Both the position numbers and the translations under genes were made by a program. This document shows, one piece after another, positions 249 through 39,658 of a stretch of DNA of 64,000 bases. Under the pieces are notes generated by a model. That model saw nothing but the letters and a program-made list of their open reading frames with translations. It had not been told where the DNA came from and did no database searches. Source of the DNA: Micromonospora peucetia. GTDB lineage: Bacteria; Actinomycetota; Actinomycetes; Mycobacteriales; Micromonosporaceae. The stretch covers positions 434,001 through 498,000 of the forward strand of contig NZ_FMIC01000002.1 in NCBI RefSeq assembly GCF_900091625.1, written 5' to 3'. Numbering within the stretch: the first letter of the stretch is position 1; every line of letters begins with the position of its first letter.

Positions 249-321
249 CGCGATCTTGCACTTTCGGCCCTCAGTTCGCGGCTTATGCCGCATCTGCCGG
301 GGCAGAAAGTGCAAGATCGCG
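249..321. repeat. 73-bp palindromic element, copy 1 (MITE/REP-like)
   Basis: Perfect 17-bp terminal inverted repeats lie at 249-265 and 305-321, beginning CGCGATCTTGCACTTT and ending with its complement. The inner 39 bases include the shared block CGGGGCA near the right arm. A second copy of exactly the same 73-bp length, inner sequence diverged, is at 39586-39658. The ends are conserved and the middle varies, as in a small non-autonomous mobile or REP-like element. There is no coding capacity. Confidence 0.8.
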
Positions 322-465
322 GGCAGCCCTGCCGGCATTCGACGGTCGGCGGGCTGGGTGGCGTACCCGCGGTCGACAGCGCCGACAGTCAGATGTCGAC
401 CGCGACCGCCGCCCCGCCCGTGCCGAAGCCGGCCCCGTCGTACGGGCACCCCGGCAGGAACCGGC
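322..465. other. Intergenic stretch, no gene seen
   Basis: Between the palindromic element and the end of the acetyltransferase gene I see no convincing coding sequence. The bases may be decayed remains of the CBM-encoding gene, but no recognisable motif is left. Confidence 0.4.
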
Positions 466-1032
466 TCATCCGACGGTCCGGCTCCCGACCCCGTCGACGG
501 TCAGCACGAAGGTCTCCAGGGACTCGCCCCCGTACCAGTCGGTGCGCCGGCCCACGTGGGTCATGCCGAGCCGGCGGGCCACCGCCATCGACGCGGCGTT
601 GCCCGGGCCCACCACCGCGTAGACCTCCCGGGTGCCGGCGGCCAGTTCCCGCCTCGCCACCGCCCGGGCCGCCTCGGTGGCGTACCCGTGGCCCCAGGAG
701 TCGGGGTGCAGGTGCCAGCCCACCTCGATGTCCTCGGTCGGTACACCCTCGTCCCGCCCGGGCAGCGGCTTGAGCAGCACCGTACCGACCACCACGCCGG
801 TGTCGCGGACCTCGATCGCCCAGGTGCCGTACCGGCCGCCGTGCCCCGCGTGCCGCTCCCGCCACGTCGCGAGCCGTTCGGCGGCCTGCGCCGGATCGGT
901 CATTGGCAGGCCGGGCGCGTTCAACCAGCGGGCGACCTCCGGCCGCGAGTAGATGTCGAAGATCCGGGCCAGGTCGGCCGGGTCGGCGGTCCAGTCCCGC
1001 AGGACCAGGCGTTCCGTGCTGAGAACGGTCAT
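466..1032 (-). CDS. GNAT family N-acetyltransferase (RimJ/RimL-like)
   Basis: 188-residue protein of the acetyl-CoA-dependent N-acetyltransferase fold. It begins MTVLSTERLVLRDW, the usual opening of the RimJ/RimL-type subgroup, and carries the acetyl-CoA-binding segment HPDSWGHGYATEAA at about residues 109-122, followed by the late motif GNAASMAVARRLGM. The ATG at 1032 is chosen because the family begins there, although the frame is open further upstream. The substrate cannot be told: ribosomal protein, antibiotic and small-amine acetylation all occur in this group. Its start faces the YihY-like gene at 1084, leaving a short divergent promoter region. Confidence 0.85.
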   Translation of the reverse strand: MTVLSTERLVLRDWTADPADLARIFDIYSRPEVARWLNAPGLPMTDPAQAAERLATWRERHAGHGGRYGTWAIEVRDTGVVVGTVLLKPLPGRDEGVPTEDIEVGWHLHPDSWGHGYATEAARAVARRELAAGTREVYAVVGPGNAASMAVARRLGMTHVGRRTDWYGGESLETFVLTVDGVGSRTVG

Positions 1033-1083
1033 GGCCGGCGATCCTAATGAGTGACGTGGGGCGGTGCGGGGAAAGAAGCCGCG

Positions 1084-1959
1084 ATGGGCGGCGGATGGCA
1101 ACGGGCGAAGCGGGTCACCAGTGCGGCGTTCCGCCCGCTGCGGGGCCGGGACCTGTCGCTGCACGCCGCCGCCATCACCTTCTACGGGGCGATCGCCGTG
1201 GTGCCGGTGGCCCTGCTGGCGATCTGGCTGACCTCGCTGCTGGCGGGAGCCGAACGGGTGCGCCGGCTCACCTCGTACGCCGTGCGCACGCTGCCGGACG
1301 CGATCGGCGCGCCCCACGCGGTGCAGGCGCTGGTCGAGGCCGGGGTGGGGTTGACCCCGCTGCTGGCGTTGGCGTCGCTGCTGCCGGCGTCGCTCTACGG
1401 CGAAGGGCTGCGCCGCGCCTTCGTCTCGGTCGCCGTGCCGCGCAGCGACGAGTCGCTGGTCGGCTGGCGGGGCCGGTTGCTGCTGCTCCCGCTGCTGGCC
1501 CCGGCCCCGGCCCTGCTGCTGTCGATCCTGCTCGCACTGCCGACGACCACCGGGCTGGTCCGGCAGGGCGGATGGCCCGGTGCGCTGGGGGTGGTGCTGT
1601 CGTTCCTGGCGGTCTGGCTGGTGCTCACCCCGGTGCTGCTCTGGGTGTTCCGGGTGGTCGGGCCGGCCTCGCCGGACTGGCTCTCCACGCTGGGCGTCGG
1701 GTCGTTCACCGCGGCCAACCTCTCCGGCTTCCTGCACGGCTTCGTGCTCTTCGCCTCGCTCCCGATCGACCTGGGCGTGCCGTTCGGGGGTATCGACGAG
1801 ATCGGCGCGGGGGTGGCGGTCCTGCTCTGGCTCTACCTCTTCCACGTGATCGTGCTGGCCGGTTACTCCGCCACCCTCGCCCTGTCCCGCTGGCGCACCA
1901 CCCGCTCCGGGGTCGCCGGCCCGGGCTCGTCGGACTCGCGGATGCCGAAGCGGCGGTAG
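1084..1959 (+). CDS. YihY/BrkB family inner-membrane protein
   Basis: 291 residues with several hydrophobic spans (for example LHAAAITFYGAIAVVPVALL, then three more pairs). This matches the YihY/virulence-factor BrkB family, whose hallmark is an early ALTFYG-like segment; here it is AITFYGAIAVVP. Function is unknown; the family is often mislabelled RNase BN. I choose ATG 1084 because GGAAAG lies just upstream; an in-frame ATG at 1051 is possible. The 3' end overlaps the convergent MMPL gene by 97 bp, so the two mRNAs would be complementary at their ends. Confidence 0.8.
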   Translation: MGGGWQRAKRVTSAAFRPLRGRDLSLHAAAITFYGAIAVVPVALLAIWLTSLLAGAERVRRLTSYAVRTLPDAIGAPHAVQALVEAGVGLTPLLALASLLPASLYGEGLRRAFVSVAVPRSDESLVGWRGRLLLLPLLAPAPALLLSILLALPTTTGLVRQGGWPGALGVVLSFLAVWLVLTPVLLWVFRVVGPASPDWLSTLGVGSFTAANLSGFLHGFVLFASLPIDLGVPFGGIDEIGAGVAVLLWLYLFHVIVLAGYSATLALSRWRTTRSGVAGPGSSDSRMPKRR

Positions 1960-4061
1960 ACGCGGCCGAGCGGGCCGGGGGCCCACCAGTTCCAGTGGCC
2001 CAGCAGGCGCATCGTTGCCGGTACCAGCAGCGCCCGGACCAGCGTCGCGTCCACCACGATCGCCACGATCATGCCGATCCCGATGAGCTTGATGTACGCC
2101 ATCTCGCCGGTGGCGAAGCCAGCCACCACGATGATCAGCAGCAGCGCGGCAGCGGTGATGATCCGCCCGGTGTGCTGGAGCGCGGTGGCCACCGACGCGG
2201 TGTTGTCGCCCGTGCGGTCCCACTCCTCACGCACCCGGGAGAGCAGGAACACCTCATAGTCGGTCGCCAGCCCGAAGAGCACGGCGAGCATGAGGATCGG
2301 GTTGCTCGGTTCGATGAACCCGGTCGGGGTGAAGCCGAGCAGGTCGGCGAAGTGCCCGTCCTGGAAGATCCAGACCACCACGCCGAACGACGCGCCGATC
2401 GACACCAGGTTCATCAGCACCGCCTTGACCGGCAGCACCACCGAGCCGAAGGCGAGGAACAGCAGGACCAGGATCGCGGCGGCCATCAGCAGGGCCATCC
2501 AGGGCAACCGGTCGGCGAGGCCGTCGATCAGGTCGAGGTCCACGCCGGGCCGGCCGCCGACGAGCACCTCGGCGTCGCCCGGCGCGGGCAGGGCGCGCAG
2601 CGCCCGGACCAGGTCGTACGCGGCGTCCCCGCTCGGCTCGCCCGGGTAGGTCACCGTCAACAGCGTCGACGCGTCCCGGTTGGCCGCCACCTGCACCCCG
2701 GTCACGCCGGGCACGGCGGCGACCCGGTCGGCGAAGGGCTGCACCTGCTCCGGGGACGCCCCGGACACCAGCACGTCGATCGGCGAGATCGTGCCGCCGG
2801 AGAACTCCGCGGCGACCCGCTCGGAGACCACCCGGGGCTCGGCGCTCGCCGGCAGCACCCGGTCGTCGAACCCGCCGAACTCCATCCGCAGGGTCGGCGC
2901 GGCCAGCAGCAGGAGCAGCGCGGTCACCCCGACCAGGTAGCGCACCGGGCGGCGCATCACGCTGTGCGCGATCCGGGCCCAGACGCCGCCCGTCCCACCC
3001 GCCGCCGGCCGCCCCCCGCGCGCCCCACGCCGCCACGGCAGCGGTACGCGCAACGCGTCGATCCGGTGGCCGAGCACCGCGAGCAGGGCCGGCAGCACGG
3101 TCAACGCCGCCAGCATGGCGACCAGCACGGCGGCCATCCCGCCGAGCCCCATCGAACGCAGGAACGCCTGCGGGAAGATCAGCAGGCTGGCCATGGCGGT
3201 CGCGATGGTGAGTCCGGAGACCAGCACCGTCCGCCCGGCCGTGGCCATGGTCCGCCGGATCGCCGTGGGGGTGTCGCGGCCGGCGGCCAACTCCTCGCGG
3301 AACCGGCTGACCACGAAGAGGGCGTAGTCGATCGCCATGCCCAGGCCGATCAGGGTGATGACGTTGATGGCGAAGACCGACACGTCGGTGACCATGTTGA
3401 CCAGCCGGACGGCGACGAACGCGCCGAGGACGGCCAGCCCGCCGATCAGCAGTGGCGTGGACGCGGCCACCAGCCCGCCGAAGATCAGCACGAGCAGCAC
3501 CAGCAGCACCGGCATGGAAAGGAGTTCCGCGCGGGTGATGTCCTTGGTGGTCTGGACGTTCGACTCGTACAGGGCCGCCGTCGCGCCGCCGACCTCGGTC
3601 CGTACGCCGGGCGTCGCGAGGGCCGGCCGCAGTTCCTCGTACGCGGCGGCCTTGTCGTCCTTGTCGGCGGCCCGGAGCTGGACCAGCGCGTAGGTGGCCC
3701 GGCGGTCGGTGGACAGCAGTGCGGGGGCCTGGGTGTCGTACCAGGTGGTGACGCTGGTGATCTCGGGGCGCGCGCGCAGCCCGGCGACGGTGGCCGCGAC
3801 CGGGTCACGGAAGGCCGGCTCGTCGACGGTCGGCCCGTCGCTGGACCAGAGCACGACCAGGTCGGCGCCCTGCGGCCCCAACTCCTGGACGATCCGGTCG
3901 GCGGCCCGGCTGGACTCGCTCGCCGGGTCGTCGAAGCCGCCGCCGGTGAGCTGGCCGAAGACCCCGACCCCCCAGGTGGAGCCGACCGCGACCAGCACCA
4001 GGGCGGCAGCCAGCACCACCCAGCGCAGTCGCACGACCATGTGTCCCCACCAGGCGAACAT
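1863..4061 (-). CDS. MMPL/RND family transporter
   Basis: 732-residue transporter of the MmpL class, which exports lipids or other hydrophobic compounds using proton force. It shows the two-fold repeat typical of the family: one N-terminal helix, a large external domain, a helix cluster with GLGMAIDYALFVVSRFREE (about residues 230-250), a second external domain and a second cluster with LFGLATDYEVFLLSRVREEW. The Asp-Tyr pairs in both clusters are the expected proton-relay residues. ATG 4061 is preceded by GGAGGGGGAGG. The gene is divergent from a TetR regulator at 4165, its likely repressor, with an inverted repeat between. The substrate is unknown. Confidence 0.9.
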   Translation of the reverse strand: MFAWWGHMVVRLRWVVLAAALVLVAVGSTWGVGVFGQLTGGGFDDPASESSRAADRIVQELGPQGADLVVLWSSDGPTVDEPAFRDPVAATVAGLRARPEITSVTTWYDTQAPALLSTDRRATYALVQLRAADKDDKAAAYEELRPALATPGVRTEVGGATAALYESNVQTTKDITRAELLSMPVLLVLLVLIFGGLVAASTPLLIGGLAVLGAFVAVRLVNMVTDVSVFAINVITLIGLGMAIDYALFVVSRFREELAAGRDTPTAIRRTMATAGRTVLVSGLTIATAMASLLIFPQAFLRSMGLGGMAAVLVAMLAALTVLPALLAVLGHRIDALRVPLPWRRGARGGRPAAGGTGGVWARIAHSVMRRPVRYLVGVTALLLLLAAPTLRMEFGGFDDRVLPASAEPRVVSERVAAEFSGGTISPIDVLVSGASPEQVQPFADRVAAVPGVTGVQVAANRDASTLLTVTYPGEPSGDAAYDLVRALRALPAPGDAEVLVGGRPGVDLDLIDGLADRLPWMALLMAAAILVLLFLAFGSVVLPVKAVLMNLVSIGASFGVVVWIFQDGHFADLLGFTPTGFIEPSNPILMLAVLFGLATDYEVFLLSRVREEWDRTGDNTASVATALQHTGRIITAAALLLIIVVAGFATGEMAYIKLIGIGMIVAIVVDATLVRALLVPATMRLLGHWNWWAPGPLGRVYRRFGIRESDEPGPATPERVVRQRDRARVAE

Positions 4062-4100
4062 TCGCCTCCCCCTCCGTCGACGGTTAGGCTGTGACCATCG

Positions 4101-4137
4101 CTCATTTGAGTGAACGCCGTTAACTATCGCAACGGCG
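4101..4137. promoter_or_regulatory. Candidate TetR operator between mmpL and tetR genes
   Basis: The 103-bp divergent gap holds CGCCGTT at 4115-4121 and its perfect complement AACGGCG at 4131-4137, separated by nine bases, with a weaker CTCA/TGAG dyad at 4101-4110. A dyad between a TetR gene and a divergent efflux-type gene is the usual operator position. Binding is inferred. Confidence 0.45.
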
Positions 4138-4164
4138 GTCGATTCGGTCAAGGGAGTCAGCCGG

Positions 4165-4893
4165 ATGGGCGCACCGAGCCGACGGGAGCGCCTACGCTCC
4201 GCGACAGTCGCCGAGATCAAGGACGGGGCACGGCGGCTGTTGGTGACGGGCGGGGTCGACGCCATCTCGCTGCGCGCCATCGCCCGGGACATGGGCATGA
4301 CCGCGCCCGCCATCTACCGTTACTTCCCCAGCCTGGAGGCGCTGGTCGCGGCGCTCGCCGGCGACCTCTACGACGAGCTGCGGCTGCGGCTGGAAGCGGC
4401 CCGGGACGGTGCCGGTGCCGAGCCGGTCGAGCAACTGCTGACCATGTCCCGGACGTTCCGCGCCTGGTCGGTGGCGCACCCCGCCGAGTTCGGGCTGATC
4501 CTCGGCGCCCCCGTCCCCGGCCGGAACGCCTTCGTCGAGGGCTGCGTCACCCCGGAGCATCCCGGCGCCCGCTTCGGCGCGGTCTTCATCCAGCCGATCC
4601 TCGACCTCTGGCACCGGTCACCCTTCCGCACCCCGCCCGCGGAGCTGCTCCGGCAACGTCTGGGCGGGCGGCGGCTGGAGCCGCTGCGGCTCAGCCACGG
4701 CGACGTGCCGATCGAGGTCGCGTACGCCTTCCTCTCCGGCTGGACCCGCCTCTACGGCCTGGTCGCCATGGAGGTCTTCCACCAGTTCGACTGGGCGGTC
4801 ACCGAGGCCGAGGCGCTGTTCGAGCTGGAGATGGAGATGTTCACCGCCCAACTGCTGGCCGACCCGCCCACGGGCGACAGCCCGCCGACCTGA
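4165..4893 (+). CDS. TetR/AcrR family transcriptional regulator
   Basis: 242-residue repressor-type regulator. The N-terminal helix-turn-helix is clear at about residues 34-60 (ISLRAIARDMGMTAPAIYRYF). The C-terminal ligand-binding domain has segments FRAWSVAHPAEFGLILGAPV and YGLVAMEVFHQFDW, seen in the TetR subgroup with a WHG-type C-terminal domain. ATG 4165 has AAGGGAG at good spacing. It is divergent from the MMPL transporter, so control of that gene and of itself is the simplest reading. The ligand is unknown. Confidence 0.88.
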   Translation: MGAPSRRERLRSATVAEIKDGARRLLVTGGVDAISLRAIARDMGMTAPAIYRYFPSLEALVAALAGDLYDELRLRLEAARDGAGAEPVEQLLTMSRTFRAWSVAHPAEFGLILGAPVPGRNAFVEGCVTPEHPGARFGAVFIQPILDLWHRSPFRTPPAELLRQRLGGRRLEPLRLSHGDVPIEVAYAFLSGWTRLYGLVAMEVFHQFDWAVTEAEALFELEMEMFTAQLLADPPTGDSPPT

Positions 4894-4919
4894 GGGAGGG
4901 AGTCCGTCGACGGGACGGG

Positions 4920-5576
4920 CTACCGCCCCCGCGCCCGGGTCCGCTCCCGGTGCCCGGCGCGGTCAGGGCGACCGATGTGGCCGCCCTCGCGTCGGGACTC
5001 ACCGAGCCAGAGGTGCGGCGCGTAGTGGTGGACCGCCGCCACCGCCAGGGGCACGTCGGCAGCCTCGATACGGAGACGGTGGCGCAGCCAGGGGAGCCCG
5101 GGGCGGAACGGTTCCTCCTCGCGCACCAGCGTCCACAGCACCGGGTCGTCGCGGTCGATGGGGCCCGTCGGATACAGCTCCAGGGAATGGAAAGTGGTCT
5201 TGTGCCCGCGGCTGCGGAACAGGCCGACTCCGGCGAGGGTGTGCCACGGGATGACGTTGCGTCCGTCTCCCTTGTCGAACCACAGGCCAGTGTGGTCGAC
5301 GAGGATCCTCGTCCGCCGTTGCCGCCAGAACACCACGAGGAGCAAGCCGCCCGGCACACCGAGGGCCGCCAGGACGACCGCCGCGACGAGCCCCTCCCCG
5401 CGTGATCGTGGCTGGTGACTCCCGTCGACGACCGCCACAGCCGCGACGACACCGCCGACCCCGATCAGGACGAGGATCAGGGCGAAGGGCAGCCCGGTCC
5501 GGGCGCGGCGCCACCCGGTCGGTATCACCGTGGCGTTCGGGGCGGGGGTGGGCGCGATGAAGGGTGCTGCTGCCAT
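4920..5576 (-). CDS. Membrane protein with PH-like domain, hypothetical
   Basis: 218 residues. Two close hydrophobic helices (LPFALILVLIGVGGVVAAVA and LVAAVVLAALGVPGGLLLVV) are followed by a soluble part with ILVDHTGLWFDKGDGRNVIPW, typical of bacterial PH-like domain membrane proteins. I take ATG 5576 (MAAAPFIAP) rather than a longer upstream frame because the extension has no family-like sequence. No partner is evident and the function is unknown. Confidence 0.65.
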   Translation of the reverse strand: MAAAPFIAPTPAPNATVIPTGWRRARTGLPFALILVLIGVGGVVAAVAVVDGSHQPRSRGEGLVAAVVLAALGVPGGLLLVVFWRQRRTRILVDHTGLWFDKGDGRNVIPWHTLAGVGLFRSRGHKTTFHSLELYPTGPIDRDDPVLWTLVREEEPFRPGLPWLRHRLRIEAADVPLAVAAVHHYAPHLWLGESRREGGHIGRPDRAGHRERTRARGR

Positions 5577-5675
5577 GGCAGGCAAGCCTAGTAAGTGCCT
5601 ACGTGCGCTCTCACCTGCCCCTTCGCCATGATCCGCTGGCACCGTCCCCACCGCTTGTGGCGCCGGGAGGCGGTA

Positions 5676-5726
5676 GGTGCCAGGCGGGTCGGCGCGAGGC
5701 AGGTCGTCGGCGCAAGACAGGTCGTC
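5676..5726. repeat. Short imperfect tandem repeat, 18-bp unit
   Basis: 5691-5708 and 5709-5726 are two 18-bp units, GGCGCGAGGCAGGTCGTC and the same with two changes, preceded by a related segment at 5676-5690. It lies in the gap upstream of the FAD oxidoreductase gene. It may be simple slippage. Confidence 0.6.
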
Positions 5727-5809
5727 GATGTAAGGCTGGTGGGCGGTGCCGACGGCGACGCTGGCAAATCATCGGCGGCGGAGGGCTGACTGACGGCGCC
5801 TGTGGGCAC

Positions 5810-5824
5810 TAGGCTCCCCCGGCA
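5810..5824 (+). promoter_or_regulatory. -10 box for leaderless oxidoreductase mRNA
   Basis: TAGGCT at 5810-5815 lies eight bases before ATG 5824, and no purine-rich ribosome-binding site precedes the start. This geometry is typical of leaderless transcripts in actinobacteria. Confidence 0.45.
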
Positions 5825-7419
5825 TGGGTGACGAGCTGCCACCCCGGGCCGACGTGGTGATCGTCGGGTCCGGGCACAACGGTCTGGTGTCCGCGATCCT
5901 GCTCGCCCGCGCCGGGCTCGACGTGCTGGTGCTGGAGGCGGCGGACGTGATCGGCGGAGCCACCCGCACCGAGGCACCTTTCCGCAAGGTGCCCGGGCTG
6001 CGCCACTCCACCGGGTCGTACCTGCTCGGGCTCATGCCGCCGGAGCTGCTCGCCACGCTCGACGTGCGCATCCCCGTGCTGCGCCGCGACCCGCACTACT
6101 TCCTGCCCACCCCGGGCGGCCCCGGCTCGCCCTACCTGCTCTTCGGCAGCGACACGGCGGCCACCCGGGCCCAGTTCGCGGAGTTCTTCTCCCCCGCCGA
6201 CATGGCCGCCGACGATGCCCTCCAGGCCGAGCTGGCCGCGCTGCGCGACGACCTCGCCCCCGCCTGGCTGGCCGAGCCGCTGGCGGTCGAGGAGACCGCC
6301 GAGCGGTACGTCCGGCCGACGCTGCGGCAGGTCTTCGTCGACCTCGTCCGCGGCTCCGTCGCCGACCACCTGGCCCGCTTCGACTTCCGCTCCGAACTGC
6401 TGGTCAGCATGTACGCGGTCACCGACGGGCTGTCCGGGCTGAACGCCGGCCCCGACGACCCCGGCACCGGACACAACTTCCTCGTGCACAACATGTGCCG
6501 GCTGCCCGGTTCCGACGGCACCTGGATGATCGCCGAGGGCGGGATGGGCACCGTGTCGGGTACGTTCGCCGACGCGGCCCGGGCCGCCGGCGCGACGATC
6601 CTGACCGGCACGCCGGTCAGCGCGATCACCCTGGACGGCGGCGCGGCCAGTGGAGTGGTGCTCGCCGACGGGCGGGAGGTCGCCGCGCGGGTGGTGCTCG
6701 GCGCCTGCGACCCGTACCGGCTGATGGACCTGCTGCCCGACGGCGCGCTCCCGGCACCACTGGCCGACCGGATGGCGGCGGTCCGCCGCCCCGGCACCAC
6801 ACTCAAGCTCAACCTGGCGCTTACCGGCCTGCCCCGCTTCTCCTGCCTCCCCGAGGGCACGCCGAACCCGTTCGGCTCGACGATCCACCTGCTGCCCGGC
6901 TCGGACTCGCTGATCGGCGGGGGCGGCGAGGCTCCGATGGCGGCGCTGCGCGCCATGTGGGCCGACGTCCAGGCAGGGCTGCTGCCCGACGAGCCGACCA
7001 TCGAGTGGTACCTGCACACCACCGTCGACCCGTCACTGTCGGACGGCCGGGGGCACCACTCGTCGGCGCTCTTCGTCCAGTCGGTGCCGTACGAGCTGGC
7101 CGGCACCACCTGGGACGAGGCGCTGCCCGGCTACGTCGACCGGCTGATCGGCATCTGCGAGCGGTACGCCCCCGGAACCGCCGACCTGATCGCCGACGCG
7201 GTGCCGCTGCCGCCGCCCGGCATCGAGGCACACTTCGGCATCACCGGCGGGCACATCCACCACGTCGACAACACCGTCTCGTTCACCGACCGGATGCCGT
7301 ACGCCACCGGGGTCGACGGCGTCTATGCCGGCAGCGCCGGCTGCCACCCGGCCGGCAGCGTCATCGGCGCCGCCGGCCACAACGCCGCCCACCGCATCCT
7401 CACCGACCTCGGCCGCTGA
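5824..7419 (+). CDS. FAD-dependent phytoene-desaturase-like oxidoreductase
   Basis: 531 residues, a flavoprotein of the NAD(P)/FAD amine-oxidase/phytoene-desaturase superfamily, closest by pattern to the PYROXD2-like group. The dinucleotide-binding motif VVIVGSGHNGLVSA starts at residue 11 and is followed by LVLEAADVIGGATRTE, where the Glu binds the ribose. The C-terminus has the FAD-sealing motif VDGVYAGSAGCHPAGSVIGA. The reaction is unknown; there are no carotenoid genes nearby. The stop overlaps the convergent TMEM175-type gene by 20 bp. Confidence 0.82.
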   Translation: MGDELPPRADVVIVGSGHNGLVSAILLARAGLDVLVLEAADVIGGATRTEAPFRKVPGLRHSTGSYLLGLMPPELLATLDVRIPVLRRDPHYFLPTPGGPGSPYLLFGSDTAATRAQFAEFFSPADMAADDALQAELAALRDDLAPAWLAEPLAVEETAERYVRPTLRQVFVDLVRGSVADHLARFDFRSELLVSMYAVTDGLSGLNAGPDDPGTGHNFLVHNMCRLPGSDGTWMIAEGGMGTVSGTFADAARAAGATILTGTPVSAITLDGGAASGVVLADGREVAARVVLGACDPYRLMDLLPDGALPAPLADRMAAVRRPGTTLKLNLALTGLPRFSCLPEGTPNPFGSTIHLLPGSDSLIGGGGEAPMAALRAMWADVQAGLLPDEPTIEWYLHTTVDPSLSDGRGHHSSALFVQSVPYELAGTTWDEALPGYVDRLIGICERYAPGTADLIADAVPLPPPGIEAHFGITGGHIHHVDNTVSFTDRMPYATGVDGVYAGSAGCHPAGSVIGAAGHNAAHRILTDLGR

Positions 7420-8098: not shown

Positions 8099-8159
8099 GC
8101 CACCCCCTCTTCGACCTGATGGTCACCCGGCGGGGGCGGCGGGCGCGGGGAAATCGCCG

Positions 8160-10313: not shown

Positions 10314-10325
10314 ACCGTACGCGGA

Positions 10326-30609: not shown

Positions 30610-30653
30610 CACTACCGCCCGGGAACCCTGACAGGGCTCCCCGGGCGGTAGTG
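30610..30653 (-). terminator. Terminator of rplS
   Basis: CACTACCGCCCGGG (30610-30623) pairs perfectly with CCCGGGCGGTAGTG (30640-30653), with an inner CCCTG/CAGGG pair. It is about 115 bp past the rplS stop and before lepB. Confidence 0.85.
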
Positions 30654-30768
30654 GCCGTCGCTCCGCCGTCGTGGCGGGACGTCGCCCGGCTGCGCCCGTA
30701 GCGACCAGGGTAGTGCGGTCCGGTCGGTACGACATACGCGCAGCTCGGGCGGCGTGGCGAGCGTGAGG

Positions 30769-31125: not shown

Positions 31126-31267
31126 CGCTGCGTCCTCGTGAGGCTCACGGCGCACCGTCAATCGGTGCGCGGGTGGGTGATTCTGATCCCCGGGTGGCGG
31201 TCGGTGACCCGACCCCGGTCAGGGACCCTCGCAGCCGACCGCGGCGCGGACGGTTGCGGCAACCTCC

Positions 31268-32041: not shown

Positions 32042-32061
32042 GCGGGGCTGCTCCAGCGGTT

Positions 32062-32619
32062 CTACAGATCGAGCAGACCGGCCGGCGGGTCGACGACGAC
32101 GCGACCGCCGGCGAGGTCTACCTCGGGGACGATCGCCCGGACGAACGGGATGTACGCGATGCGGCCCTCGGGACGGCGCAGCACCAGCAGGTCCGATGCG
32201 GGGGCGTGGTCGATCCGGGCCACCTCGCCCAGCCGGTCGCCGTCGGGGGTGACCACGGCCAGCCCGACGAGCTGGTGGTCGTGGAACTCCTCCGGATCCT
32301 CCGGCGGGGTGACGTCGGCGCTGTCGACCGCGACCAGCGTGCCGCGCAGCGCCTCGGCGACGTCCCGGTCCGGGATGCCCTCGAACACGACCAGCATCCG
32401 CCCCTGATGCCAGCGGGCGGACTCCACGGTCAGCTCGGCGGGCACCCGGAAGGGCTCGCCTGGCCCGGGCGCGGGCCGCGGCGACGGGGTCGCCCCGGGC
32501 TCGGTGCGCAGCACCGTACCCGGGGCGAACCGCGCTTCGGGTTCGTCGGTCCGCACCTCCACGGTGACCTCACCGCGGAGGCCGTGCGGCTTGCCGATCC
32601 TGCCGACGATGAGCAGCAT
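32062..32619 (-). CDS. rimM: 16S rRNA processing protein RimM
   Basis: 185 residues. RimM binds uS19 and helps mature the 30S head. N-terminal beta-barrel ([16 protein letters not shown]) and C-terminal PRC-barrel part ([36 protein letters not shown]) are present. Its ATG overlaps the KH-protein stop (TGATG). Confidence 0.96.
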
Positions 32620-32852
32620 CAGTACGAGTCGACGATGTCGACGCGTACGCCGCGCCCGCCGATGGAGCCGATCACCTGGCGCAGCGCCTTGGCGGTCCGG
32701 CCGGACCGCCCGATCACCGTGCCGAGGTCCTCCGGGTGCACGCGGACTTCCAGCCGCTTGCCCCGACGGGAGTCGACCAGCCGGACGCGTACGTCATCGG
32801 GGTTGTCGACGATGCCCTTGACCAGGTGCTCCAACGCCGGACGTAGTGCCAT
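32619..32852 (-). CDS. KH-domain RNA-binding protein (KhpA-like)
   Basis: 77 residues, one KH domain with the motif VIGRSGRTAKALRQVI. It binds RNA and is found between rpsP and rimM in many Gram-positive genomes. ATG 32852 starts one base after the rpsP stop, so I prefer it to a start five codons upstream. Confidence 0.93.
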   Translation of the reverse strand: MALRPALEHLVKGIVDNPDDVRVRLVDSRRGKRLEVRVHPEDLGTVIGRSGRTAKALRQVIGSIGGRGVRVDIVDSY

Positions 32853-32853
32853 G

Positions 32854-33318
32854 TCAGGCCTGCTCACCGGCGTCGGCAGCGGCCGGGGCCTCGGCCGGAG
32901 CCTCGGTCTTCGGCGTTTCGGCCGGAGCCTCGGCCTTGGCGGCCTTCTTGGCCGGCTTGGCCGGCGCCTCGGCCAGCCCGGCGGCGGCCTTCGCCTCGGC
33001 CTCGTACGCCGCGGTGCGGCTGACCCGCTCCGGGGCGACCTTCAGCGGCGGCGGGGCCGGCAGGCCCTTGAACTTCTGCCAGTCACCGGTCAGCTCCAGC
33101 AGCCGCTGCACCGCCTCGCTCGGCTGGGCGCCGACGGACAGCCAGTACTGGACCCGCTCCGACTTGACCTCGATCACCGAAGGGTCTTCCTTCGGCTGGT
33201 AGACCCCGACGAACTCGATCGCCCGGCCGTCGCGCTTGGTGCGCGAGTCGGCGATGACGATGCGGTACTGCGGGTTGCGGATCTTGCCCATCCGCAGGAG
33301 CCGGATCTTTACGGCCAC
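32854..33318 (-). CDS. rpsP: 30S ribosomal protein bS16
   Basis: 154 residues. The core [20 protein letters not shown] to about residue 85 is standard. About 65 extra residues form an Ala/Pro/Glu/Lys tail ([15 protein letters not shown] and similar). It is the first gene of rpsP-KH-rimM-trmD. Confidence 0.97.
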
Positions 33319-33473
33319 AGTTGTTTCGCTCCTGTTGCGATCTCACCTGCCCGGTACGGGCGGTGCACGGGTGAGAGCCGACCGGCACGTGGGGTTGGGC
33401 CGGAGACTGCTCGGTGGACTGGCGACGTGCCCGGGTTAGAGGGCGCCGAACACGTGCCGGATACCAGCCAGCC

Positions 33474-33503
33474 ATTCTGCCAGATCAGGACCGGATCTCT
33501 CAC
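33474..33503 (-). promoter_or_regulatory. Likely rpsP operon promoter
   Basis: On the minus strand GTGAGA (complement of 33498-33503) and CAGAAT (complement of 33474-33479) are spaced by 18 bases, four matches each to the consensus boxes. The leader would be about 150 nt. Confidence 0.45.
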
Positions 33504-33596
33504 ACCGGACCGTCCCGGGCCACCTGCGAGGCGGCGGAAGTGACGGAAAGCACACGTCGGAGGCCGGGAACGACCGCCGGATCAGGCCTGCCGGGG

Positions 33597-34244
33597 TCAG
33601 CGCACCGGGGAGCGGTCCCAACCGGGCGGCAACTCGTCGGGGATGCCCCAGTCAGACGGCGGGGTGAAGTCGCACCAGGTGCCGTCGAACGGGAACTCCC
33701 CCGCCTCGGCCAGCGCGATCACCCGCTTCCCCTCGGCCCGCACCGCGTCCGGGTCGGCCACCCAGTAGTGGTCGGGGAAGGCCAGCCGCTCGGTGAACTC
33801 CTCCTCGTCCTTCCACTCCCAGCCGCGGTCCGGACGGACCACCACGTCGAGGTCCTGGTCCACCATGTCGACGCCGGCGAGGGTGCCGTCGTCCCAGCGC
33901 ACGCCGGGCTCCTCCAGGTTGACGTACCAGGCGGTGAAGCGGTCGTACGCGTCGCGGAACCACCACACCGAGTGGGCCGCCCCGGTGGGCAGGAACGTCA
34001 GCAGCGGCGGGCCGTTCCACCGGCCCGGGGCCAGGCGGTACGACGAGGTGATCCACTCCGCGAACGGGACCGCGCGCATGCCCAGCCCGGCCTCGGTGAC
34101 CTCGCCCGCCGTGGGGGCGTCGCGGGCCACCCAGAGCAGCAGGCCCCGATCGTCGTCGCTGACCACCCGCGCGGCACGTGCCCAGCCGATCCGGCCCCGC
34201 CGCACGTTGCGGTGCACGATCAACCGCCCCGGTTCGAATCTCAC
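33597..34244 (-). CDS. DUF402 domain protein
   Basis: 215 residues. The DUF402 core is recognisable from WWFRDAYDRFTAWYVNLEEP through DMVDQDLDVVVRPD, including the acidic residues D-x-D thought to bind metal in FomD-like nucleotide phosphatases. Its biological role here is unknown. The GTG start is at 34244. Confidence 0.8.
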   Translation of the reverse strand: MRFEPGRLIVHRNVRRGRIGWARAARVVSDDDRGLLLWVARDAPTAGEVTEAGLGMRAVPFAEWITSSYRLAPGRWNGPPLLTFLPTGAAHSVWWFRDAYDRFTAWYVNLEEPGVRWDDGTLAGVDMVDQDLDVVVRPDRGWEWKDEEEFTERLAFPDHYWVADPDAVRAEGKRVIALAEAGEFPFDGTWCDFTPPSDWGIPDELPPGWDRSPVR

Positions 34245-34283
34245 GCCCCGACCCTACCGGCGCCCCCGCCCGCGCCCGCCCGG

Positions 34284-34338
34284 GTGCGAGGAGGGGCCCC
34301 TTCCTACACCTCAGGTTTGAAGGTGCCCTTCCTTACGC
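34284..34338. repeat. Palindromic intergenic repeat before proS end
   Basis: GTGCGAGGAGGGGCCCCTTC continues into TACACCTCAGGTTTGAAGGT and GCCCTTCCTTAC. The AGGGGCCCCT palindrome, the CCTCAGG centre and the second AAGG-CCTT part look like an interspersed repeat I remember from Micromonospora/Salinispora intergenic DNA. It sits right at the end of proS and may serve as its terminator. Confidence 0.45.
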
Positions 34339-34343
34339 CACGC

Positions 34344-35750
34344 TCAGTAGGCGCGGGCCAGGATGGCGACCAGGTCGGGCTCGTCCTCGGAGTCGGGCAC
34401 CGAACCGTCGGCACGCAGCAGGCAGCGCACCGTGACGCTGTGTCCGTTCGCCTCCGCCTCGCCCTGGACGCCGACCGCCGACCACGGCACCATGGCCCAG
34501 CCGGTGGCCGCCGCCTCGATCGCCTCGGCCAGGGTCGACACCTCGACGGTGTGGGACTTGCGATGGGCCAGCGCCTGGTCGTGCAGGGCCCGCTGGTCGG
34601 CGTCGAGCGCGGCCAGCACCGCGCCGACCACGTCCGCCACCGGCGTCGGGGACTTCGAACCGTCCGTGCGCCGGACCACGACCGCGTTGCCGGTGGCCAG
34701 GTCACGGGGGCCGACCTCGACGCGTACCGGATAGCCACGCAGCTCGGCGTCGACGGCCCGGCGGCCGAACGGGGTGTCGGTGCGGTCGTCGAGCGCGACC
34801 CGGACGCCGGCGTCGTGCAGCGCGTCGCGCAGCTTGGCCGCCGCCTCACCCACGCCCTCGCCGTCCTTGACCACCATGACGTACGCCTGCACGGGCGCCA
34901 GGTTCGGCGGCACCCGCAGGCCGTTGTCGTCGCCGTGGCACATGATCAGGCCGCCGAGCATCCGGGTGGAGGTGCCCCAGGAGGTCGTCCACGCGTGCTC
35001 CCGGCCGCCTTCGGCCGAGGAGTAGCTGATGTCGAAGGCCTTGGCGAAGTTCTGCCCCAGCTCGTGGCTGGTGCCGAGCTGGAGCGCCTTGCCGTCACCC
35101 ATCATGCCTTCACAGGTGTAGGTGGCGATCGCGCCGGCGAAGCGCTCACGGGCCGTCTTCAGGCCGACGACCACCGGGATGCCGAGCACGTTGACCATCA
35201 GGTCCTCGTACGCCTCGTGCACGATCCGCCGGGCGTACGCCCGCGCGTCGTCGCGGGTCGCGTGCGCGGTGTGCCCCTCCTGCCAGAGGAACTCGCTGGT
35301 GCGCAGGAAGATCCGGGGGCGCAGCTCCCAGCGGACCACGTTGGCCCACTGGTTGAGCAGCAGCGGGAGGTCGCGGTAGGAGTCGATCCACTTGGCCATG
35401 AACTCGCCGATGACGGTCTCGCTGGTGGGACGCACCACGACCGGCTCGGCGAGCTGCTTGCCGCCGCCGTGGGTGACGACCGCGAGCTCCGGCGAGAAGC
35501 CCTCGACGTGCTCGGCCTCGCGCTTGAGGTAGCTCTCCGGGATGAACAGCGGGAAGTACGCGTTCTCCGCGCCCGCCGCCTTGATCCGGGCGTCCATCTC
35601 GGCCTGCATCCGTTCCCAGATGGCGTAGCCGGCCGGGCGGATGACCATGGTCCCCCGGACCGGGCCGTTGTCGGCCAGCTTCGCCTTGGCGATCAGGTCC
35701 TGGTACCAGCGGGGAAAGTCCTCCGCACGGGGAGTGAGCACGCGTGCCAT
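34344..35750 (-). CDS. proS: Prolyl-tRNA synthetase, archaeal/eukaryotic type
   Basis: 468 residues, class II synthetase. Motif 2 (VVRWELRPRIFLRTSEFLWQEGHTAHAT, as pattern) and motif 3 (GGLIMCHGDDNGLRVPPNLAP) follow the early part EPVVVRPTSETVIG. There is no INS editing domain between motifs 2 and 3, and the protein ends in Tyr (AILARAY); both are features of type 3 ProRS. An anticodon-binding domain (PVQAYVMVVKDG) and a C-terminal domain follow. Confidence 0.95.
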   Translation of the reverse strand: MARVLTPRAEDFPRWYQDLIAKAKLADNGPVRGTMVIRPAGYAIWERMQAEMDARIKAAGAENAYFPLFIPESYLKREAEHVEGFSPELAVVTHGGGKQLAEPVVVRPTSETVIGEFMAKWIDSYRDLPLLLNQWANVVRWELRPRIFLRTSEFLWQEGHTAHATRDDARAYARRIVHEAYEDLMVNVLGIPVVVGLKTARERFAGAIATYTCEGMMGDGKALQLGTSHELGQNFAKAFDISYSSAEGGREHAWTTSWGTSTRMLGGLIMCHGDDNGLRVPPNLAPVQAYVMVVKDGEGVGEAAAKLRDALHDAGVRVALDDRTDTPFGRRAVDAELRGYPVRVEVGPRDLATGNAVVVRRTDGSKSPTPVADVVGAVLAALDADQRALHDQALAHRKSHTVEVSTLAEAIEAAATGWAMVPWSAVGVQGEAEANGHSVTVRCLLRADGSVPDSEDEPDLVAILARAY

Positions 35751-35839
35751 GACCGCAGATCCTATGCGTCGGCCGAAGGGGCGGCGCCATCGGGCGCGAT
35801 GTCGCCGACGTCCGGCGAGACGGCCGGTGCGGCGGGTCG

Positions 35840-35855
35840 TAGGATTCGACCACCA
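35840..35855 (+). promoter_or_regulatory. -10 box before tetR
   Basis: TAGGAT at 35840-35845 is nine bases before ATG 35855, and no ribosome-binding site is visible. A leaderless or near-leaderless mRNA is likely. Confidence 0.4.
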
Positions 35856-36460
35856 TGGGTGAGGTGAGAGACGGTACCCGTACGCGGGATTCGATCGTCG
35901 AGGCCGCCCGGACGCTGACCGTCGCGACCGGCTGGGACAGCGTCCGGATGGGCGCCGTCGCGTCTGCGGCGGGGGTCAGCCGGCAGACGGTCTACAACGA
36001 GTTCGGCAGCAAGGCCGGGCTGGCCGAGGCGCTCGCCCGGCGGGAGATCGACCGGTTCGTCGGCGACGTGCGCGCGCTGCTGCGCACACATGGCGACGAC
36101 GTCCGGGCCGCCGCGCACGCGACCATCACGCACACCCTCACGGAGGCGGCCGACGATCCACTGATCAAGGCTGTCCTGACCAGCGACCAGGGCGGCTCGG
36201 ACGAACTGCTGCCCTATCTCACCACCCGGCAGGAGTTGGTGCTCACCGAGGCCACCGAGGCGCTGCTGGAGTGGGCCGACACCGTGCTGCCGGGCGCCGA
36301 CCGGGCCGCCGTCACCTTCGCCACGGACTCGGTGGTCCGGTTGGTGATCAGCCACATCATCCTGCCCAACGCCCCGGTCGAGCAGACCGCCGCCGCCCTC
36401 GCAGACCTGGCGGTGTACCTGCTCCTGCACGCGGTCACCCTGCGTTCCTACGCCGACTGA
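35855..36460 (+). CDS. TetR family transcriptional regulator
   Basis: 201 residues. Helix-turn-helix at about 32-55 (RMGAVASAAGVSRQTVYNEF). The C-terminal part, with VVRLVISHIILPNAPVEQTA, is like regulators of lipid or cytochrome P450 genes. It is divergent from proS and convergent with the amidohydrolase; no target is obvious. Confidence 0.87.
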   Translation: MGEVRDGTRTRDSIVEAARTLTVATGWDSVRMGAVASAAGVSRQTVYNEFGSKAGLAEALARREIDRFVGDVRALLRTHGDDVRAAAHATITHTLTEAADDPLIKAVLTSDQGGSDELLPYLTTRQELVLTEATEALLEWADTVLPGADRAAVTFATDSVVRLVISHIILPNAPVEQTAAALADLAVYLLLHAVTLRSYAD

Positions 36461-36513
36461 CCGGGGTGCGGCGCCCGTCGAGGGCCCGCGCCGGAGGACC
36501 GGGCACGGCTGGG

Positions 36514-37593
36514 TCAGCGGACGACGCGACCGCGCAGCACGATGCGGGCGGGACTGCGTACGGCGCGCAGGTCGACGCGCGGGTCCTCGGGATAGACGAC
36601 GAGGTCCGCCAGGCCGCCCTCGACCAGTCCGGGGAAGCCGAGCCACTCGCGGGCCTGCCAGGAGGCGGCGGCGAGCACGTCCGTGGTGGACATGCCGGCC
36701 CGCTCGTGCAGCAGCAGCATCTCCTCCGCCGCGAGGCCGTGGTCGATGCCGCCACCCGCGTCCGTGCCCACGTAGATCGGCACGCCGGCCTCGTACGCCG
36801 AACGCACCACCTCGGGGAAACGGTCGCGCAGGGCGAGCATGTGGTCGGCGTAGCCGGGGAACCTGGCCCGCGCCTGTTCGGCGATCCCGCCGAAGGTGCG
36901 AATGTTGATCATCGTGGGGATGAGGGCGGTGCCCCGTCGGGCCATCTCGTCGATCAGGTCCAGGCTGAGGCCGGTGCCGTGCTCCACCGAATCCACCCCG
37001 GCACGCACCATGATCTCGACGGCCGACTCGGAGAAGGTGTGCACGGCGGCGCGTACCCCGGCGGCGTGCGCGGCCGCGACGGCGGCGGTCATGGTGTCCG
37101 CGTCCCAGGCCGGGGCGAGGTCTCCGACGCCCCGGTCGATCCAGTCGCCGACCAGCTTCACCCAGCCGTTGCCGGCGCGCGCCTGCGCGGCCACGGTCGC
37201 GGCCACCTCCGCCGCGCCGACCTCGACGCCGATGTCGCGCAGGTAGCGCTTCGGCGGCGCGACGTGCCGGCCGGCGCGGGCCAGTCGCGGCAGGTCGGGC
37301 TCGTCGTCGAGCTCCGGATACGGGTACGGCGATCCGGCGTCCCGGATCGCGAGGACCCCGGCGTCCCGGTCGGTGCGGGCCAGCTCGCGGGCCTGGTCGA
37401 GCGAGGTGATCGGGGCGCCGCCCCGGGCGATGCCGATGTGGCAGTGCGCGTCGATCAGGCCGGGCAGCACGAAGCCACCGTCGGCGATGGTCTCCGCACC
37501 GGGGACCGGGGTGAAGGTCACCCGGTCGCCGACCAGCCAGAGGTCACGGACCTCGTCGTCGGGCAGCACCACACCGCGTACGTGCCAGGCCAT
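36514..37593 (-). CDS. Amidohydrolase family protein
   Basis: 359 residues of the imidazolonepropionase-like metal-dependent hydrolase group. Metal ligands: LIDAHCHIG (H-C-H), VHTFSES, VEHGTGL and GTDAGGG (Asp). The beta-sandwich end (GLADLVVYPEDPRVDLRAV) is intact. The substrate is unknown; the small size and lack of signal peptide suggest a cytoplasmic enzyme. It is 72 bp downstream of the small ORF after ffh. Confidence 0.85.
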   Translation of the reverse strand: MAWHVRGVVLPDDEVRDLWLVGDRVTFTPVPGAETIADGGFVLPGLIDAHCHIGIARGGAPITSLDQARELARTDRDAGVLAIRDAGSPYPYPELDDEPDLPRLARAGRHVAPPKRYLRDIGVEVGAAEVAATVAAQARAGNGWVKLVGDWIDRGVGDLAPAWDADTMTAAVAAAHAAGVRAAVHTFSESAVEIMVRAGVDSVEHGTGLSLDLIDEMARRGTALIPTMINIRTFGGIAEQARARFPGYADHMLALRDRFPEVVRSAYEAGVPIYVGTDAGGGIDHGLAAEEMLLLHERAGMSTTDVLAAASWQAREWLGFPGLVEGGLADLVVYPEDPRVDLRAVRSPARIVLRGRVVR

Positions 37594-37665
37594 GCGTCCT
37601 CCGTCTGCGCGCGAAAGGGGGCGGTCCGCCCGCCATTCTTCCCGCTCGACGCGGACCGGCGGCGG

Positions 37666-37776
37666 TCAGCCCTCGTCGCGCGCGAGCAGCCCGGCCCGCC
37701 GCGCGGTCAGCGCGGGCAGGTCGACGGAGACCTTCCACGGCCGCTCGGTGACGAAGAGATCCTCGGTGTGGGTCAC
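37666..37776 (-). CDS. Candidate 36-residue ORF between ffh and amidohydrolase
   Basis: GTG 37776 opens a 36-residue frame reading MTHTEDLFVTERPWKVSVDL and then PALTARRAGLLARDEG. It begins eight bases after the ffh stop and GAGG lies just upstream. The amino-acid pattern looks protein-like, but nothing in it is recognisable. It could be a real small protein, or the last piece of a lost gene. Confidence 0.35.
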   Translation of the reverse strand: MTHTEDLFVTERPWKVSVDLPALTARRAGLLARDEG

Positions 37777-37784
37777 GACACGCC

Positions 37785-39344
37785 TCAGCGGGGTCGGCCG
37801 TCGCCGCCCTTGCCGAGCTTGTTGAAGTCGATCTTCGGCAGCTTGAAGCCCGGGGGCAGGCCCTGACCGCCGGCCAGGTCGTTCGGGTCCATTCCCGGCG
37901 GGAGCTGCGGCATGCCGCCCGGGAAGCCGCCCGGCATCCCGGCGCCCGCCCCGGCGCGCGGCCGGTTGCCGCCCTTGGTGCCCTTGCGCTTGTTCTTCGG
38001 CGACTTGGTGGCCTTGCGCCGGCCGCCGCCGGGCAGGCCCATCATGCCGCCCATCTGCTTCATCATCTTCTGTGCCTCGACGAAGCGGTTGAGCAGCTGG
38101 TTGACGTCCATCACCGTGACGCCGGAACCGTTGGCGATGCGGGCCCGGCGGGAACCGTTGATGATCTTCGGGGTGGTGCGCTCGGCGGGGGTCATCGACC
38201 GGATGATCGCGGTGACCCGGTCGAAGTGCTTGTCGTCCAACTCGGAGAGCTGGTCCTTCATCTGCCCCATGCCGGGCATCATGGCCAGCACGTTGGCGAT
38301 CGGGCCCATCCGCCGGACCGCGATGAGCTGGTCGAGGAAGTCCTCCAGGGTGAACTGCTCACCGCCCATCAGCTTGGCGGTCATCTTGTCCTTCTGATCG
38401 GTGTCGAAGGCCTGCTCGGCCTGCTCGATCAGAGTGAGGACGTCGCCCATGCCGAGGATCCGGCTGGCCATCCGGTCGGGGTGGAAGACGTCGAAGTCCT
38501 CCAGCTTCTCGCCGGTGGAGGCGAAGAGGATCGGCTGCCCGGTGACCTCCCGAACCGACAGCGCGGCGCCACCACGGGCGTCGCCGTCGAGCTTGGAGAG
38601 GACCACACCGGTGATGCCCACGCCGTCGCGGAACGCCTCGGCGGTGCGTACCGCGTCCTGCCCGACCATGGCGTCGATGACGAAGATGACCTCGTCCGGC
38701 TCGACCGCGTCGCGGATGTCGGCGGCCTGCCGCATCATCTCGGCGTCGATGCCGAGCCGGCCGGCGGTGTCGACGATGACGATGTCCCGGGCGGCCCGCT
38801 TCGCGTGCTCGATCGAGGCGCGCGCCACCTGCACCGGGTCACCGGTGCCGTTGCCGGGCTCCGGGGCGTACACCTCGACGCCGGCGCGGCCACCGAGCAC
38901 CTGGAGCTGCCCGACGGCGTTGGGGCGCTGGAGGTCGGCGGCGACCAGCAGCGGCTGGTGGCCCTGGGCCTTGAGCCAGCGGGCCAGCTTGCCGGCGAGG
39001 GTGGTCTTACCGGAACCCTGGAGGCCGGCGAGCATGATCACCGTGGGTGGCTGCTTGGCGAACTGGAGCCGCCGCCCCTCGCCGCCGAGGACGTTGACCA
39101 GCTCCTCGTTGACGATCTTGATGATCTGCTGCGCCGGGTTGAGCGCCTGGGATACCTCGGCGCTGCGCGCCCGCTCCTTGACGTTGGCGATGAAACCCTT
39201 GACCACCGGCAGCGCGACGTCCGCCTCCAGCAGCGCGAGGCGGATCTCGCGCGCGGTGGCATCGATGTCGGCGTCGGTGAGCCGACCCTTGCCGCGGAGC
39301 TTGGTGAAGATCCCGGACAGGCGGTCACTCAAGGTGTCAAACAC
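37785..39344 (-). CDS. ffh: Signal recognition particle protein Ffh
   Basis: 519 residues. N domain, then G domain with GLQGSGKTT (107-115), DTAGRLGID, and TKLDG-type SKLDGDARGG; M domain with MGPIANVLAMMPGMGQM and the RNA-binding SGSG-type loop (INGSRRARIANGSGV). A Gly/Pro/Met-rich tail of about 70 residues follows. Ffh binds 4.5S RNA and signal sequences and docks with FtsY, which is encoded at 45371. Confidence 0.97.
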   Translation of the reverse strand: MFDTLSDRLSGIFTKLRGKGRLTDADIDATAREIRLALLEADVALPVVKGFIANVKERARSAEVSQALNPAQQIIKIVNEELVNVLGGEGRRLQFAKQPPTVIMLAGLQGSGKTTLAGKLARWLKAQGHQPLLVAADLQRPNAVGQLQVLGGRAGVEVYAPEPGNGTGDPVQVARASIEHAKRAARDIVIVDTAGRLGIDAEMMRQAADIRDAVEPDEVIFVIDAMVGQDAVRTAEAFRDGVGITGVVLSKLDGDARGGAALSVREVTGQPILFASTGEKLEDFDVFHPDRMASRILGMGDVLTLIEQAEQAFDTDQKDKMTAKLMGGEQFTLEDFLDQLIAVRRMGPIANVLAMMPGMGQMKDQLSELDDKHFDRVTAIIRSMTPAERTTPKIINGSRRARIANGSGVTVMDVNQLLNRFVEAQKMMKQMGGMMGLPGGGRRKATKSPKNKRKGTKGGNRPRAGAGAGMPGGFPGGMPQLPPGMDPNDLAGGQGLPPGFKLPKIDFNKLGKGGDGRPR

Positions 39345-39540
39345 GCGAACATCCCGTTTGTCAGTGTTCCGGCGGGCACATCGGCGACCGGGCGAGGTGT
39401 CCGGCCACCGCTAGGGTAGCCGGCCCACCGCACGACCGCTCCGGGCCGGGCCGGGCCCAGCCAAGCCGCCCCGCACACCCGCACTCCCGCACTCCGCACA
39501 CCCGCACGCACCCGCACCCCCGAAGCACCCGCGCACGCGA

Positions 39541-39587
39541 GCACCCGAGCACCCGAGCACCCGAGCGCCCGAGCGCCCGAGCGCCCG
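39541..39587. repeat. 8-bp tandem array GCRCCCGA
   Basis: Three copies of GCACCCGA are followed by three of GCGCCCGA (the last incomplete), directly abutting the palindromic element. Confidence 0.9.
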
Positions 39588-39658
39588 CGATCTTGCACTT
39601 ATGGTCCACGAGATGCGAACTTTAGGAGTTTTGTCGGGGCACAAAGTGCAAGATCGCG
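39586..39658. repeat. 73-bp palindromic element, copy 2
   Basis: CGCGATCTTGCACTT (39586-39600) pairs perfectly with its complement at 39644-39658; one more C/G pair flanks them. The length equals copy 1 at 249-321. Ends and the CGGGGCA block are shared, while the middle differs at about half of the positions. Confidence 0.8.

What the first reader, a model, noticed from the sequence alone, without database searches (positions are those of the whole stretch)
249..39658. Two copies of a 73-bp palindromic element 39 kb apart
249-321 and 39586-39658 have equal length and share 15-16 bp terminal inverted repeats and a CGGGGCA block, while the centre has drifted at about half of the positions. One copy sits where a gene fragment breaks off and one in a low-complexity intergenic region. 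Conserved ends, fixed length and variable centre point to a non-autonomous mobile or REP-like family, possibly moved by a transposase elsewhere in the genome.
Basis: partly seen in the sequence, partly recalled or inferred. Interest (0 to 1): 0.7.

Follow-up and report, generated by a model that had tools for sequence, protein, structure and literature searches.

The report
Gene-end palindromes in Micromonospora genomes
The two 73-base palindromes belong to a family of about a hundred look-alike hairpin elements that sit mostly just behind genes in Micromonospora and close relatives and may work as two-way 'end of gene' signals; how they spread and are kept is unknown.

Summary
The window's own genome holds about 100 such elements; 103 were collected, 58 with both 12-base arms perfect. 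The family occurs in 68 of 300 Micromonosporaceae genomes and in 1 of 131 sampled genomes of other families of the order. Total length is fixed. The centre is not random: base identity drifts, but a polar strong/weak pattern is kept. Elements are intergenic, mostly at gene 3' ends, 56% between convergent genes against 13% of control gaps. On average a C-rich left flank and a G-rich right flank of about 100 bp surround them, in every gene context. In a sister species the same slot can be empty or hold a palindrome with other arms. Many sites are shared with a relative (33 of 41), and a few unlinked copies share centres, so copying also happens. Many element-rich genomes have no RAYT-type transposase. 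Best reading: REPIN-like palindromes, partly domesticated as bidirectional Rho-type gene-end signals. The function is inferred, not shown.

The parts
249..321 (-). copy 1, 73 bp; polarity of the centre reads on the minus strand
   Evidence: model hit G000:C2:434250-434320:-, 83.7 bits; RNA fold -57 kcal/mol, z -8.1
249..263 (+). left arm of copy 1
307..321 (-). right arm of copy 1
39586..39658 (-). copy 2, 73 bp
   Evidence: model hit G000:C2:473587-473657:-, 76.3 bits; RNA fold -48.6 kcal/mol, z -7.7
39586..39600 (+). left arm of copy 2
39644..39658 (-). right arm of copy 2
39452..39585 (.). C-rich low-complexity left flank of copy 2, absent in the nearest relatives
   Evidence: homology with G355, G366, G025, G349 and G271 breaks at about 39451; skew profile of the family
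39659..39867 (.). G-rich low-complexity right flank of copy 2; homology resumes at about 39868 in G355 and at 39803 in G025
39866..42412 (-). glnD-type gene whose 3' end faces copy 2
   Evidence: gene; Pfam HD, ACT, GlnD_UR_UTase
37785..39344 (-). ffh (SRP54) gene downstream of copy 2
   Evidence: Pfam SRP54

Best explanation
The two palindromes are members of a Micromonosporaceae family of polar, hairpin-forming gene-end elements. One unit is a C-rich flank of about 100 bp, then GATC-ended arms enclosing a centre of fixed length, then a G-rich flank of about 100 bp. I think it works as a bidirectional, Rho-type transcription end signal. A transcript running in from either side is C-rich and G-poor (Rho loading), then meets a very stable hairpin (pause, and protected 3' end). 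The family behaves like REPINs. Conserved ends are recognised by an unknown trans-acting factor that lets copies spread now and then. Once placed behind a gene the element tends to be kept, with the arm ends and the spacing constrained while the centre drifts within a strong/weak pattern. Shown: the family, its anatomy, location, shared sites, slot turnover, and covariation at one site. Inferred: Rho-type termination, the trans factor, and the copying route.
For: Location: 142 of 143 intergenic, 79 convergent and only 11 divergent; convergent control gaps 102 of 760. Mean flank skew -0.43 to -0.64 left and +0.34 to +0.62 right within 40 bp, about 0 in control gaps. 78-nt flank read toward the element: C/G>1 in 99% and >1.5 in 88% of 210 3'-side flanks, against 56% and 11% of 520 control stretches after stop codons; this is the C>G-then-hairpin layout of RhoTermPredict (PMC6407284, passages). 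Hairpins at -57 and -48.6 kcal/mol. Own versus G271 at shared sites: arms differ at 35/840 positions, centres at 435/1162 (see bias below). Flank-anchored test at the Ribonuc_L-PSP / metallo-beta-lactamase site, 29 genomes: outer 8 arm bases differ 3.3%, centre 33%; 31 cells with both-side changes against 18.3 in shuffles and 10-17 when slid; sense-strand G-U 20 cells against A-C 7. Copying: 11 related own pairs against 1.2.
Against: No expression or termination data exist here. The flank skew is the same in divergent gaps and on 5' sides (C/G>1.5 in 88% of 74 flanks), so it belongs to the element rather than to transcript direction. Ascertainment: elements were collected by arm match, so the low arm divergence is partly built in; at the flank-anchored site the inner 4 arm bases differ 47%, so only the outer 8 are clearly constrained there. 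Termination alone does not explain shared arm letters or a strong/weak centre without general pairing. RNAalifold on that site predicts only the outer helix, and the number of further pair types is hardly higher than in shuffles (24 vs 22.2, 105 of 500). In own+G271 codirectional copies wobble gave no RNA signal (G-U 5, A-C 4).
Confidence: 0.48

Rival explanations
1. A double-stranded DNA site for a wrapping or bridging protein (gene-end insulator, topoisomerase or nucleoid-protein site). The arms are read base by base, and the centre through the minor groove as strong/weak steps repeated every 9-10 bp.
For: Centre keeps G/C versus A/T class but not base identity: G/C in at least 0.89 at positions 4, 6-9, 11, 16-18, 27, 29, 37, 38, 40 and A/T in at least 0.84 at 13, 14, 22, 23, 31 in 174 centres of 43 nt. 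A similar pattern recurs in 25 centres of a second arm type. Segments B and C do not pair beyond chance in the 43-nt class. Fixed spacing: gap 43 in 81 and 44 in 22 of 103 own elements. Convergent location would fit supercoil sinks (inference).
Against: Covariation and sense-strand wobble at the Ribonuc_L-PSP site point to a hairpin. Copy number goes from many to none or few between close species, odd for chromosome architecture. No candidate protein.
Confidence: 0.22
2. A purely selfish REPIN- or MITE-like repeat with no host role; its 3' location only reflects where insertions do no harm.
For: Architecture and location match REP/REPIN families (PMC3116915 and PMC3733652). Empty sites in sisters and unlinked related copies. 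Copy numbers vary widely. Low arm divergence at shared sites is partly an ascertainment effect.
Against: At a flank-anchored site the outer arm bases stay at 3.3% difference while the centre is at 33%; neutral remains would decay evenly. That site keeps a recognisable element in 29 of 30 genomes inspected. No RAYT in many element-rich genomes.
Confidence: 0.22
3. Ordinary intrinsic terminators that happen to share sequence.
For: Stable hairpins behind genes.
Against: No U-tract: the scan around copy 2 finds one weak site elsewhere. Most short-loop hairpins in G355 lack the flank skew and shared arms. Near-identical arms at about 100 loci are not expected.
Confidence: 0.04

Closest known systems
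REPINs (inverted REP doublets, Bertels and Rainey 2011, PMC3116915; passages read)
   Same: Two conserved inverted ends, variable spacer of fixed length that folds as a hairpin (71 bp for GI), extragenic, about 100 copies, occasional copying.
   Different: Ends have no internal palindromic core, no RAYT in many element-rich genomes tested, strong/weak pattern in the spacer, skewed C-rich/G-rich flanks, other arm types in the same slot in a sister species.
GTAG- and CGTC-tagged REPs (Di Nocera 2013, PMC3733652; abstract, passages and section 15 read)
   Same: Palindromes next to 3' ends, mostly convergent or unidirectional gaps; CGTC REPs also lack a dedicated transposase.
   Different: CGTC stands next to only 35 of 286 ends here; no GTAG in the arms; longer unit; the main text has no hit for Micromonospora, Salinispora, Streptomyces or actinobacteria.
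Rho-dependent terminators (RhoTermPredict definition, PMC6407284; passages read)
   Same: 78-nt C>G stretch followed by a hairpin behind genes.
   Different: Symmetric, palindromic and repeated with shared arm letters; termination untested.
MITEs / insertion-sequence remnants (recalled)
   Same: Short, terminal inverted repeats, no gene.
   Different: No autonomous partner found (not an exhaustive search); target duplication could not be judged.

Membership tests
REPIN | two conserved inverted ends, variable spacer of fixed length | tested here: met
   103 own elements, gap 43 (81) or 44 (22); 58 with perfect 12-base arms
REPIN | extragenic, near 3' ends | tested here: met
   142 of 143 intergenic
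REPIN | linked RAYT (Y1_Tnp) gene | tested here: not met
   PF01797 in 5 of 22 genomes; none in the element-bearing G271, G319, G034, G260, G036, G106; the own hit is an IS200/IS605 pair with OrfB and no arm was seen in the stretch read
REPIN | each end carries its own palindromic core | tested here: not met
   the 15-base arm has no REP-like self-complementary core (read by eye)
CGTC-tagged REP | CGTC tag at one end | tested here: not met
   35 of 286 ends
Rho-dependent terminator | 78-nt C>G stretch then hairpin | tested here: met
   spaced YC chain of at least 6 in 50% against 8% of controls (a rule of my own)
Rho-dependent terminator | Rho-dependent loss of transcription in vivo | not testable with these tools
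   no expression data
intrinsic terminator | U-tract after the stem | tested here: not met
   tested at copy 2 only
MITE | target-site duplication | tested here: inconclusive
   five empty slots in G355 are about 180-340 bp shorter, low-complexity flanks included, so the ends of the insertion are unclear
MITE | autonomous element with the same ends | tested here: inconclusive
   no transposase seen by eye among recurrent clusters of 568 flanking genes; not an exhaustive search

The most novel reading that the evidence does not exclude
A gene-punctuation system new to bacteria: slots behind genes hold interchangeable palindromic modules of several arm families. A lineage-specific factor recognises the arms and reads the centre as a strong/weak (minor-groove) pattern rather than as letters. 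The modules bring their own skewed flanks and replace one another in place as the factor changes.
Probability: 0.18. Interest if true: 0.8.

Novelty: new variant of a known kind. Interest (0 to 1): 0.6.

Why it matters
High-GC actinomycetes rarely use U-tract terminators, and how they end transcripts between convergent genes is poorly known (both recalled). A family of about 100 natural variants in one genome, many at shared sites, with empty and differently filled slots in sister species, makes that testable. It also shows REPIN-like elements spread over a genus without a RAYT in many of the genomes tested.

Tried and rejected
RAYT/REPIN membership was tested with PF01797 and not met. CGTC tag not met. 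Rfam: nothing at gathering score in the window and one match at E 0.4, far below its gathering score, in five loci. Phage and plasmid origin: exact pattern 0 in viral contigs; a 171-base query gave one partial match outside the element in plasmids. Apical pairing of the centre as the general cause of the strong/weak pattern: supported in the 44-nt class (z 3.5), not in the 43-nt class (z 1.0). RNA wobble in own+G271: no signal. A first orientation rule mixed native and flipped pairs; it was redone with genomic orientation. Literature: no paper holds the arm string; none with Micromonospora plus miniature inverted-repeat; two listings, unrelated by title, for Micromonospora/palindromic/repetitive extragenic; one for Salinispora, unrelated by title. 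Only that open library was searched.

Rows dropped: pairs o56/g29 (own element with 6 arm mismatches) and o93/g15 (one-sided flank match) were left out; o86/g6, also one-sided, was kept; the pair list was made by hand. L385 was left out of the 29-sequence alignment because no element was recognised there. In one search only elements with perfect 12-base arms and at least 1.2 kb on both sides were counted. The gene finder is home-made. The control starts at the stop codon, while element flanks end at the element.
Full report
WHAT IS THERE. Copies at 249-321 and 39586-39658 are exact. In the whole genome the 14-base arm core occurs 91+92 times with up to one mismatch, against 1+0 for the reversed pattern. 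The paired pattern with perfect 12-base arms occurs 58 times. A covariance model from 42 elements scored 150 strand hits in the genome, which was its cap. Fetching the listed places gave 103 elements: 58 with both arms perfect, 32 with one mismatch, 11 with two, one with three, one with six. The gap between 12-base arms is 43 (81) or 44 (22). The same search on reversed sequence gave 0 in 696 kb over the fetched stretches of both genomes.

RANGE. Exact pairs: 68 of 300 family genomes, 6 of 44 genera. With a relaxed arm, 11 of 150 genomes of the order match: 10 of 19 in the family and 1 of 131 outside, a single lone palindrome. Viral contigs: 0 exact pairs. Among the closest relatives model matches, both strands counted, are 24 in G355, 38 in G366, 3 in G025, 6 in G349 and 85 in G271; some of those in G355, G349 and G337 are of other arm types.

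ANATOMY. Arms GATCTTGCASTT are nearly fixed in the collected copies, which were collected by arm match. Next comes a short inner stem GYCS/SGRC whose pairs 5:39 and 7:37 covary; part of that may be lineage signal. The centre is strictly polar: the orientation margin is at least 2 nats in all 268 centres. It repeats a unit close to SSSRCRWWW at 9-10 bases, keeping class (G/C or A/T) more than base. A second arm type, GATCATGSASTTGTGGTG, has nearly the same total length (mostly 69) and a similar pattern in 25 typed centres. That type occurs in 53 of 141 genus genomes, up to 59 copies, and coexists with type 1 in some (G305). Its favoured arm letters differ between genomes (GCAGTT in G305, GGAGTT in G034, G215, G024); G339 and G361 mix them.

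FLANKS AND PLACE. 142 of 143 elements with enough sequence are intergenic: 79 convergent, 29 ++, 23 --, 11 divergent. Control gaps of 60-600 bp: 102 convergent of 760. On average left flanks are C-rich and right flanks G-rich for about 100 bp in all four contexts; controls are near zero. A 78-nt flank read into the element has C/G above 1.5 in 88% of 210 3'-side flanks, against 11% of 520 controls. The 74 5'-side flanks show the same, which argues that the skew belongs to the element. In 400 kb of G355, three palindromes with GATC/GGTC-plus-ATG arms have the skew, the AGATCTTGGTA palindrome and most other hairpins do not; among ten type-2 copies the skew is uneven.

HISTORY. Copy 2's slot is empty in G355, G366, G025, G349 and G271, where flanking sequence is 92-97% identical: 351-416 bp here against 16-84 bp there (coordinates). 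Eight own sites could be mapped on both sides in 400 kb of G355, a ninth on one side only. Five have 0-75 bp against 205-416 bp here and no element; three carry palindromes with other arms. Against G271, 33 of 41 elements in the fetched stretches sit at own element sites. In 35 pairs arms differ at 35 of 840 positions and equal-length centres at 435 of 1162; native orientation fits better in 26 of 35; eleven pairs exceed the 95% level of random pairs natively, three when flipped. Both sides of these pairs were found by arm match, so arm conservation there is overstated. The Ribonuc_L-PSP / metallo-beta-lactamase site (domains) is free of that bias in the other genomes, being found there by flanking genes. 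The query matches without a break across the element in about 137 of 141 genomes (read from the listing); of the 30 loci inspected, own included, 29 carry a recognisable element. There the outer 8 arm bases differ 3.3%, the inner 4 arm bases 47% and the centre 33% between genomes. The hairpin written for that site pairs 85.4% of cells; both-side changes are 31 against 18.3 in shuffles (0 of 500 as high) and 10-17 when slid, pairs with both-side changes 9 against 6.6 (28 of 500), further pair types 24 against 22.2 (105 of 500). RNAalifold predicts the outer helix only. Sense-strand non-Watson-Crick cells of the outer helix are 20 G-U, 7 A-C and 38 other; relatedness inflates such counts. Inside the own genome 11 pairs of 43-nt centres are at least 34/43 identical against 1.2 expected; for six close pairs (picked by alignment score) flank scores exceed shuffled ones by at most 10 (35 against 25) and often not at all.

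MECHANISM. Y1_Tnp was found in 5 of 22 genomes and not in several element-rich ones. Flanking genes have their 3' end toward the element in 423 of 568 cases; the recurrent clusters printed show no transposase by eye. I read the unit as a REPIN-like element kept as a two-way, Rho-type gene-end signal. The layout fits the published C>G-plus-hairpin rule. Termination itself, the trans factor and the copying route are inference. The strong/weak pattern is not explained by pairing in the 43-nt class and leaves room for a DNA-binding reading. After checking I lowered the main reading from 0.50 to 0.48 and raised the selfish rival from 0.20 to 0.22, because arm conservation is partly an effect of how copies were found.

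PAPERS. PMC3733652: abstract, passages, section 15. PMC3116915 and PMC6407284: passages. Others: search listings only.

Noticed in passing
G355 sites of own elements o6, o9, o78 (loci L339-L358): Three other palindromes occupy slots that hold type 1 here: AGATCTTGGTA-, GATCATGGAGTTGTGGTG- and GTTGATCATGAAGTTATTG-armed.
   Followed up: partly
L187 and L180 (G006, G359) at the glnD-ffh slot: A GTTAACARGGGSCCC-like repeat (L187) and a related one (L180) lie where the window has copy 2.
   Followed up: no
whole genome G000:C2: 75 of the 103 collected elements lie in the half of the chromosome nearer dnaA (2.07 Mb).
   Followed up: partly
window 1-248: Coding-looking remnant, no Pfam hit in frames 1 and 3; the G355 slot shows a longer reading frame before its own palindrome (by eye).
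   Followed up: partly
L275 (own 2,986,153 and 2,986,247): Two elements start 94 bp apart, each with its own centre, where G271 has one.
   Followed up: no
L359 (own 4.446 Mb): A divergent IS200-type TnpA and OrfB/TNB pair (IS605-like), Pfam.
   Followed up: yes
G000:C1:51259, C2:16497, C2:6724545: Three equal weak Bac_DnaA-domain hits in 558-aa frames, perhaps a repeated mobile-element ATPase.
   Followed up: no
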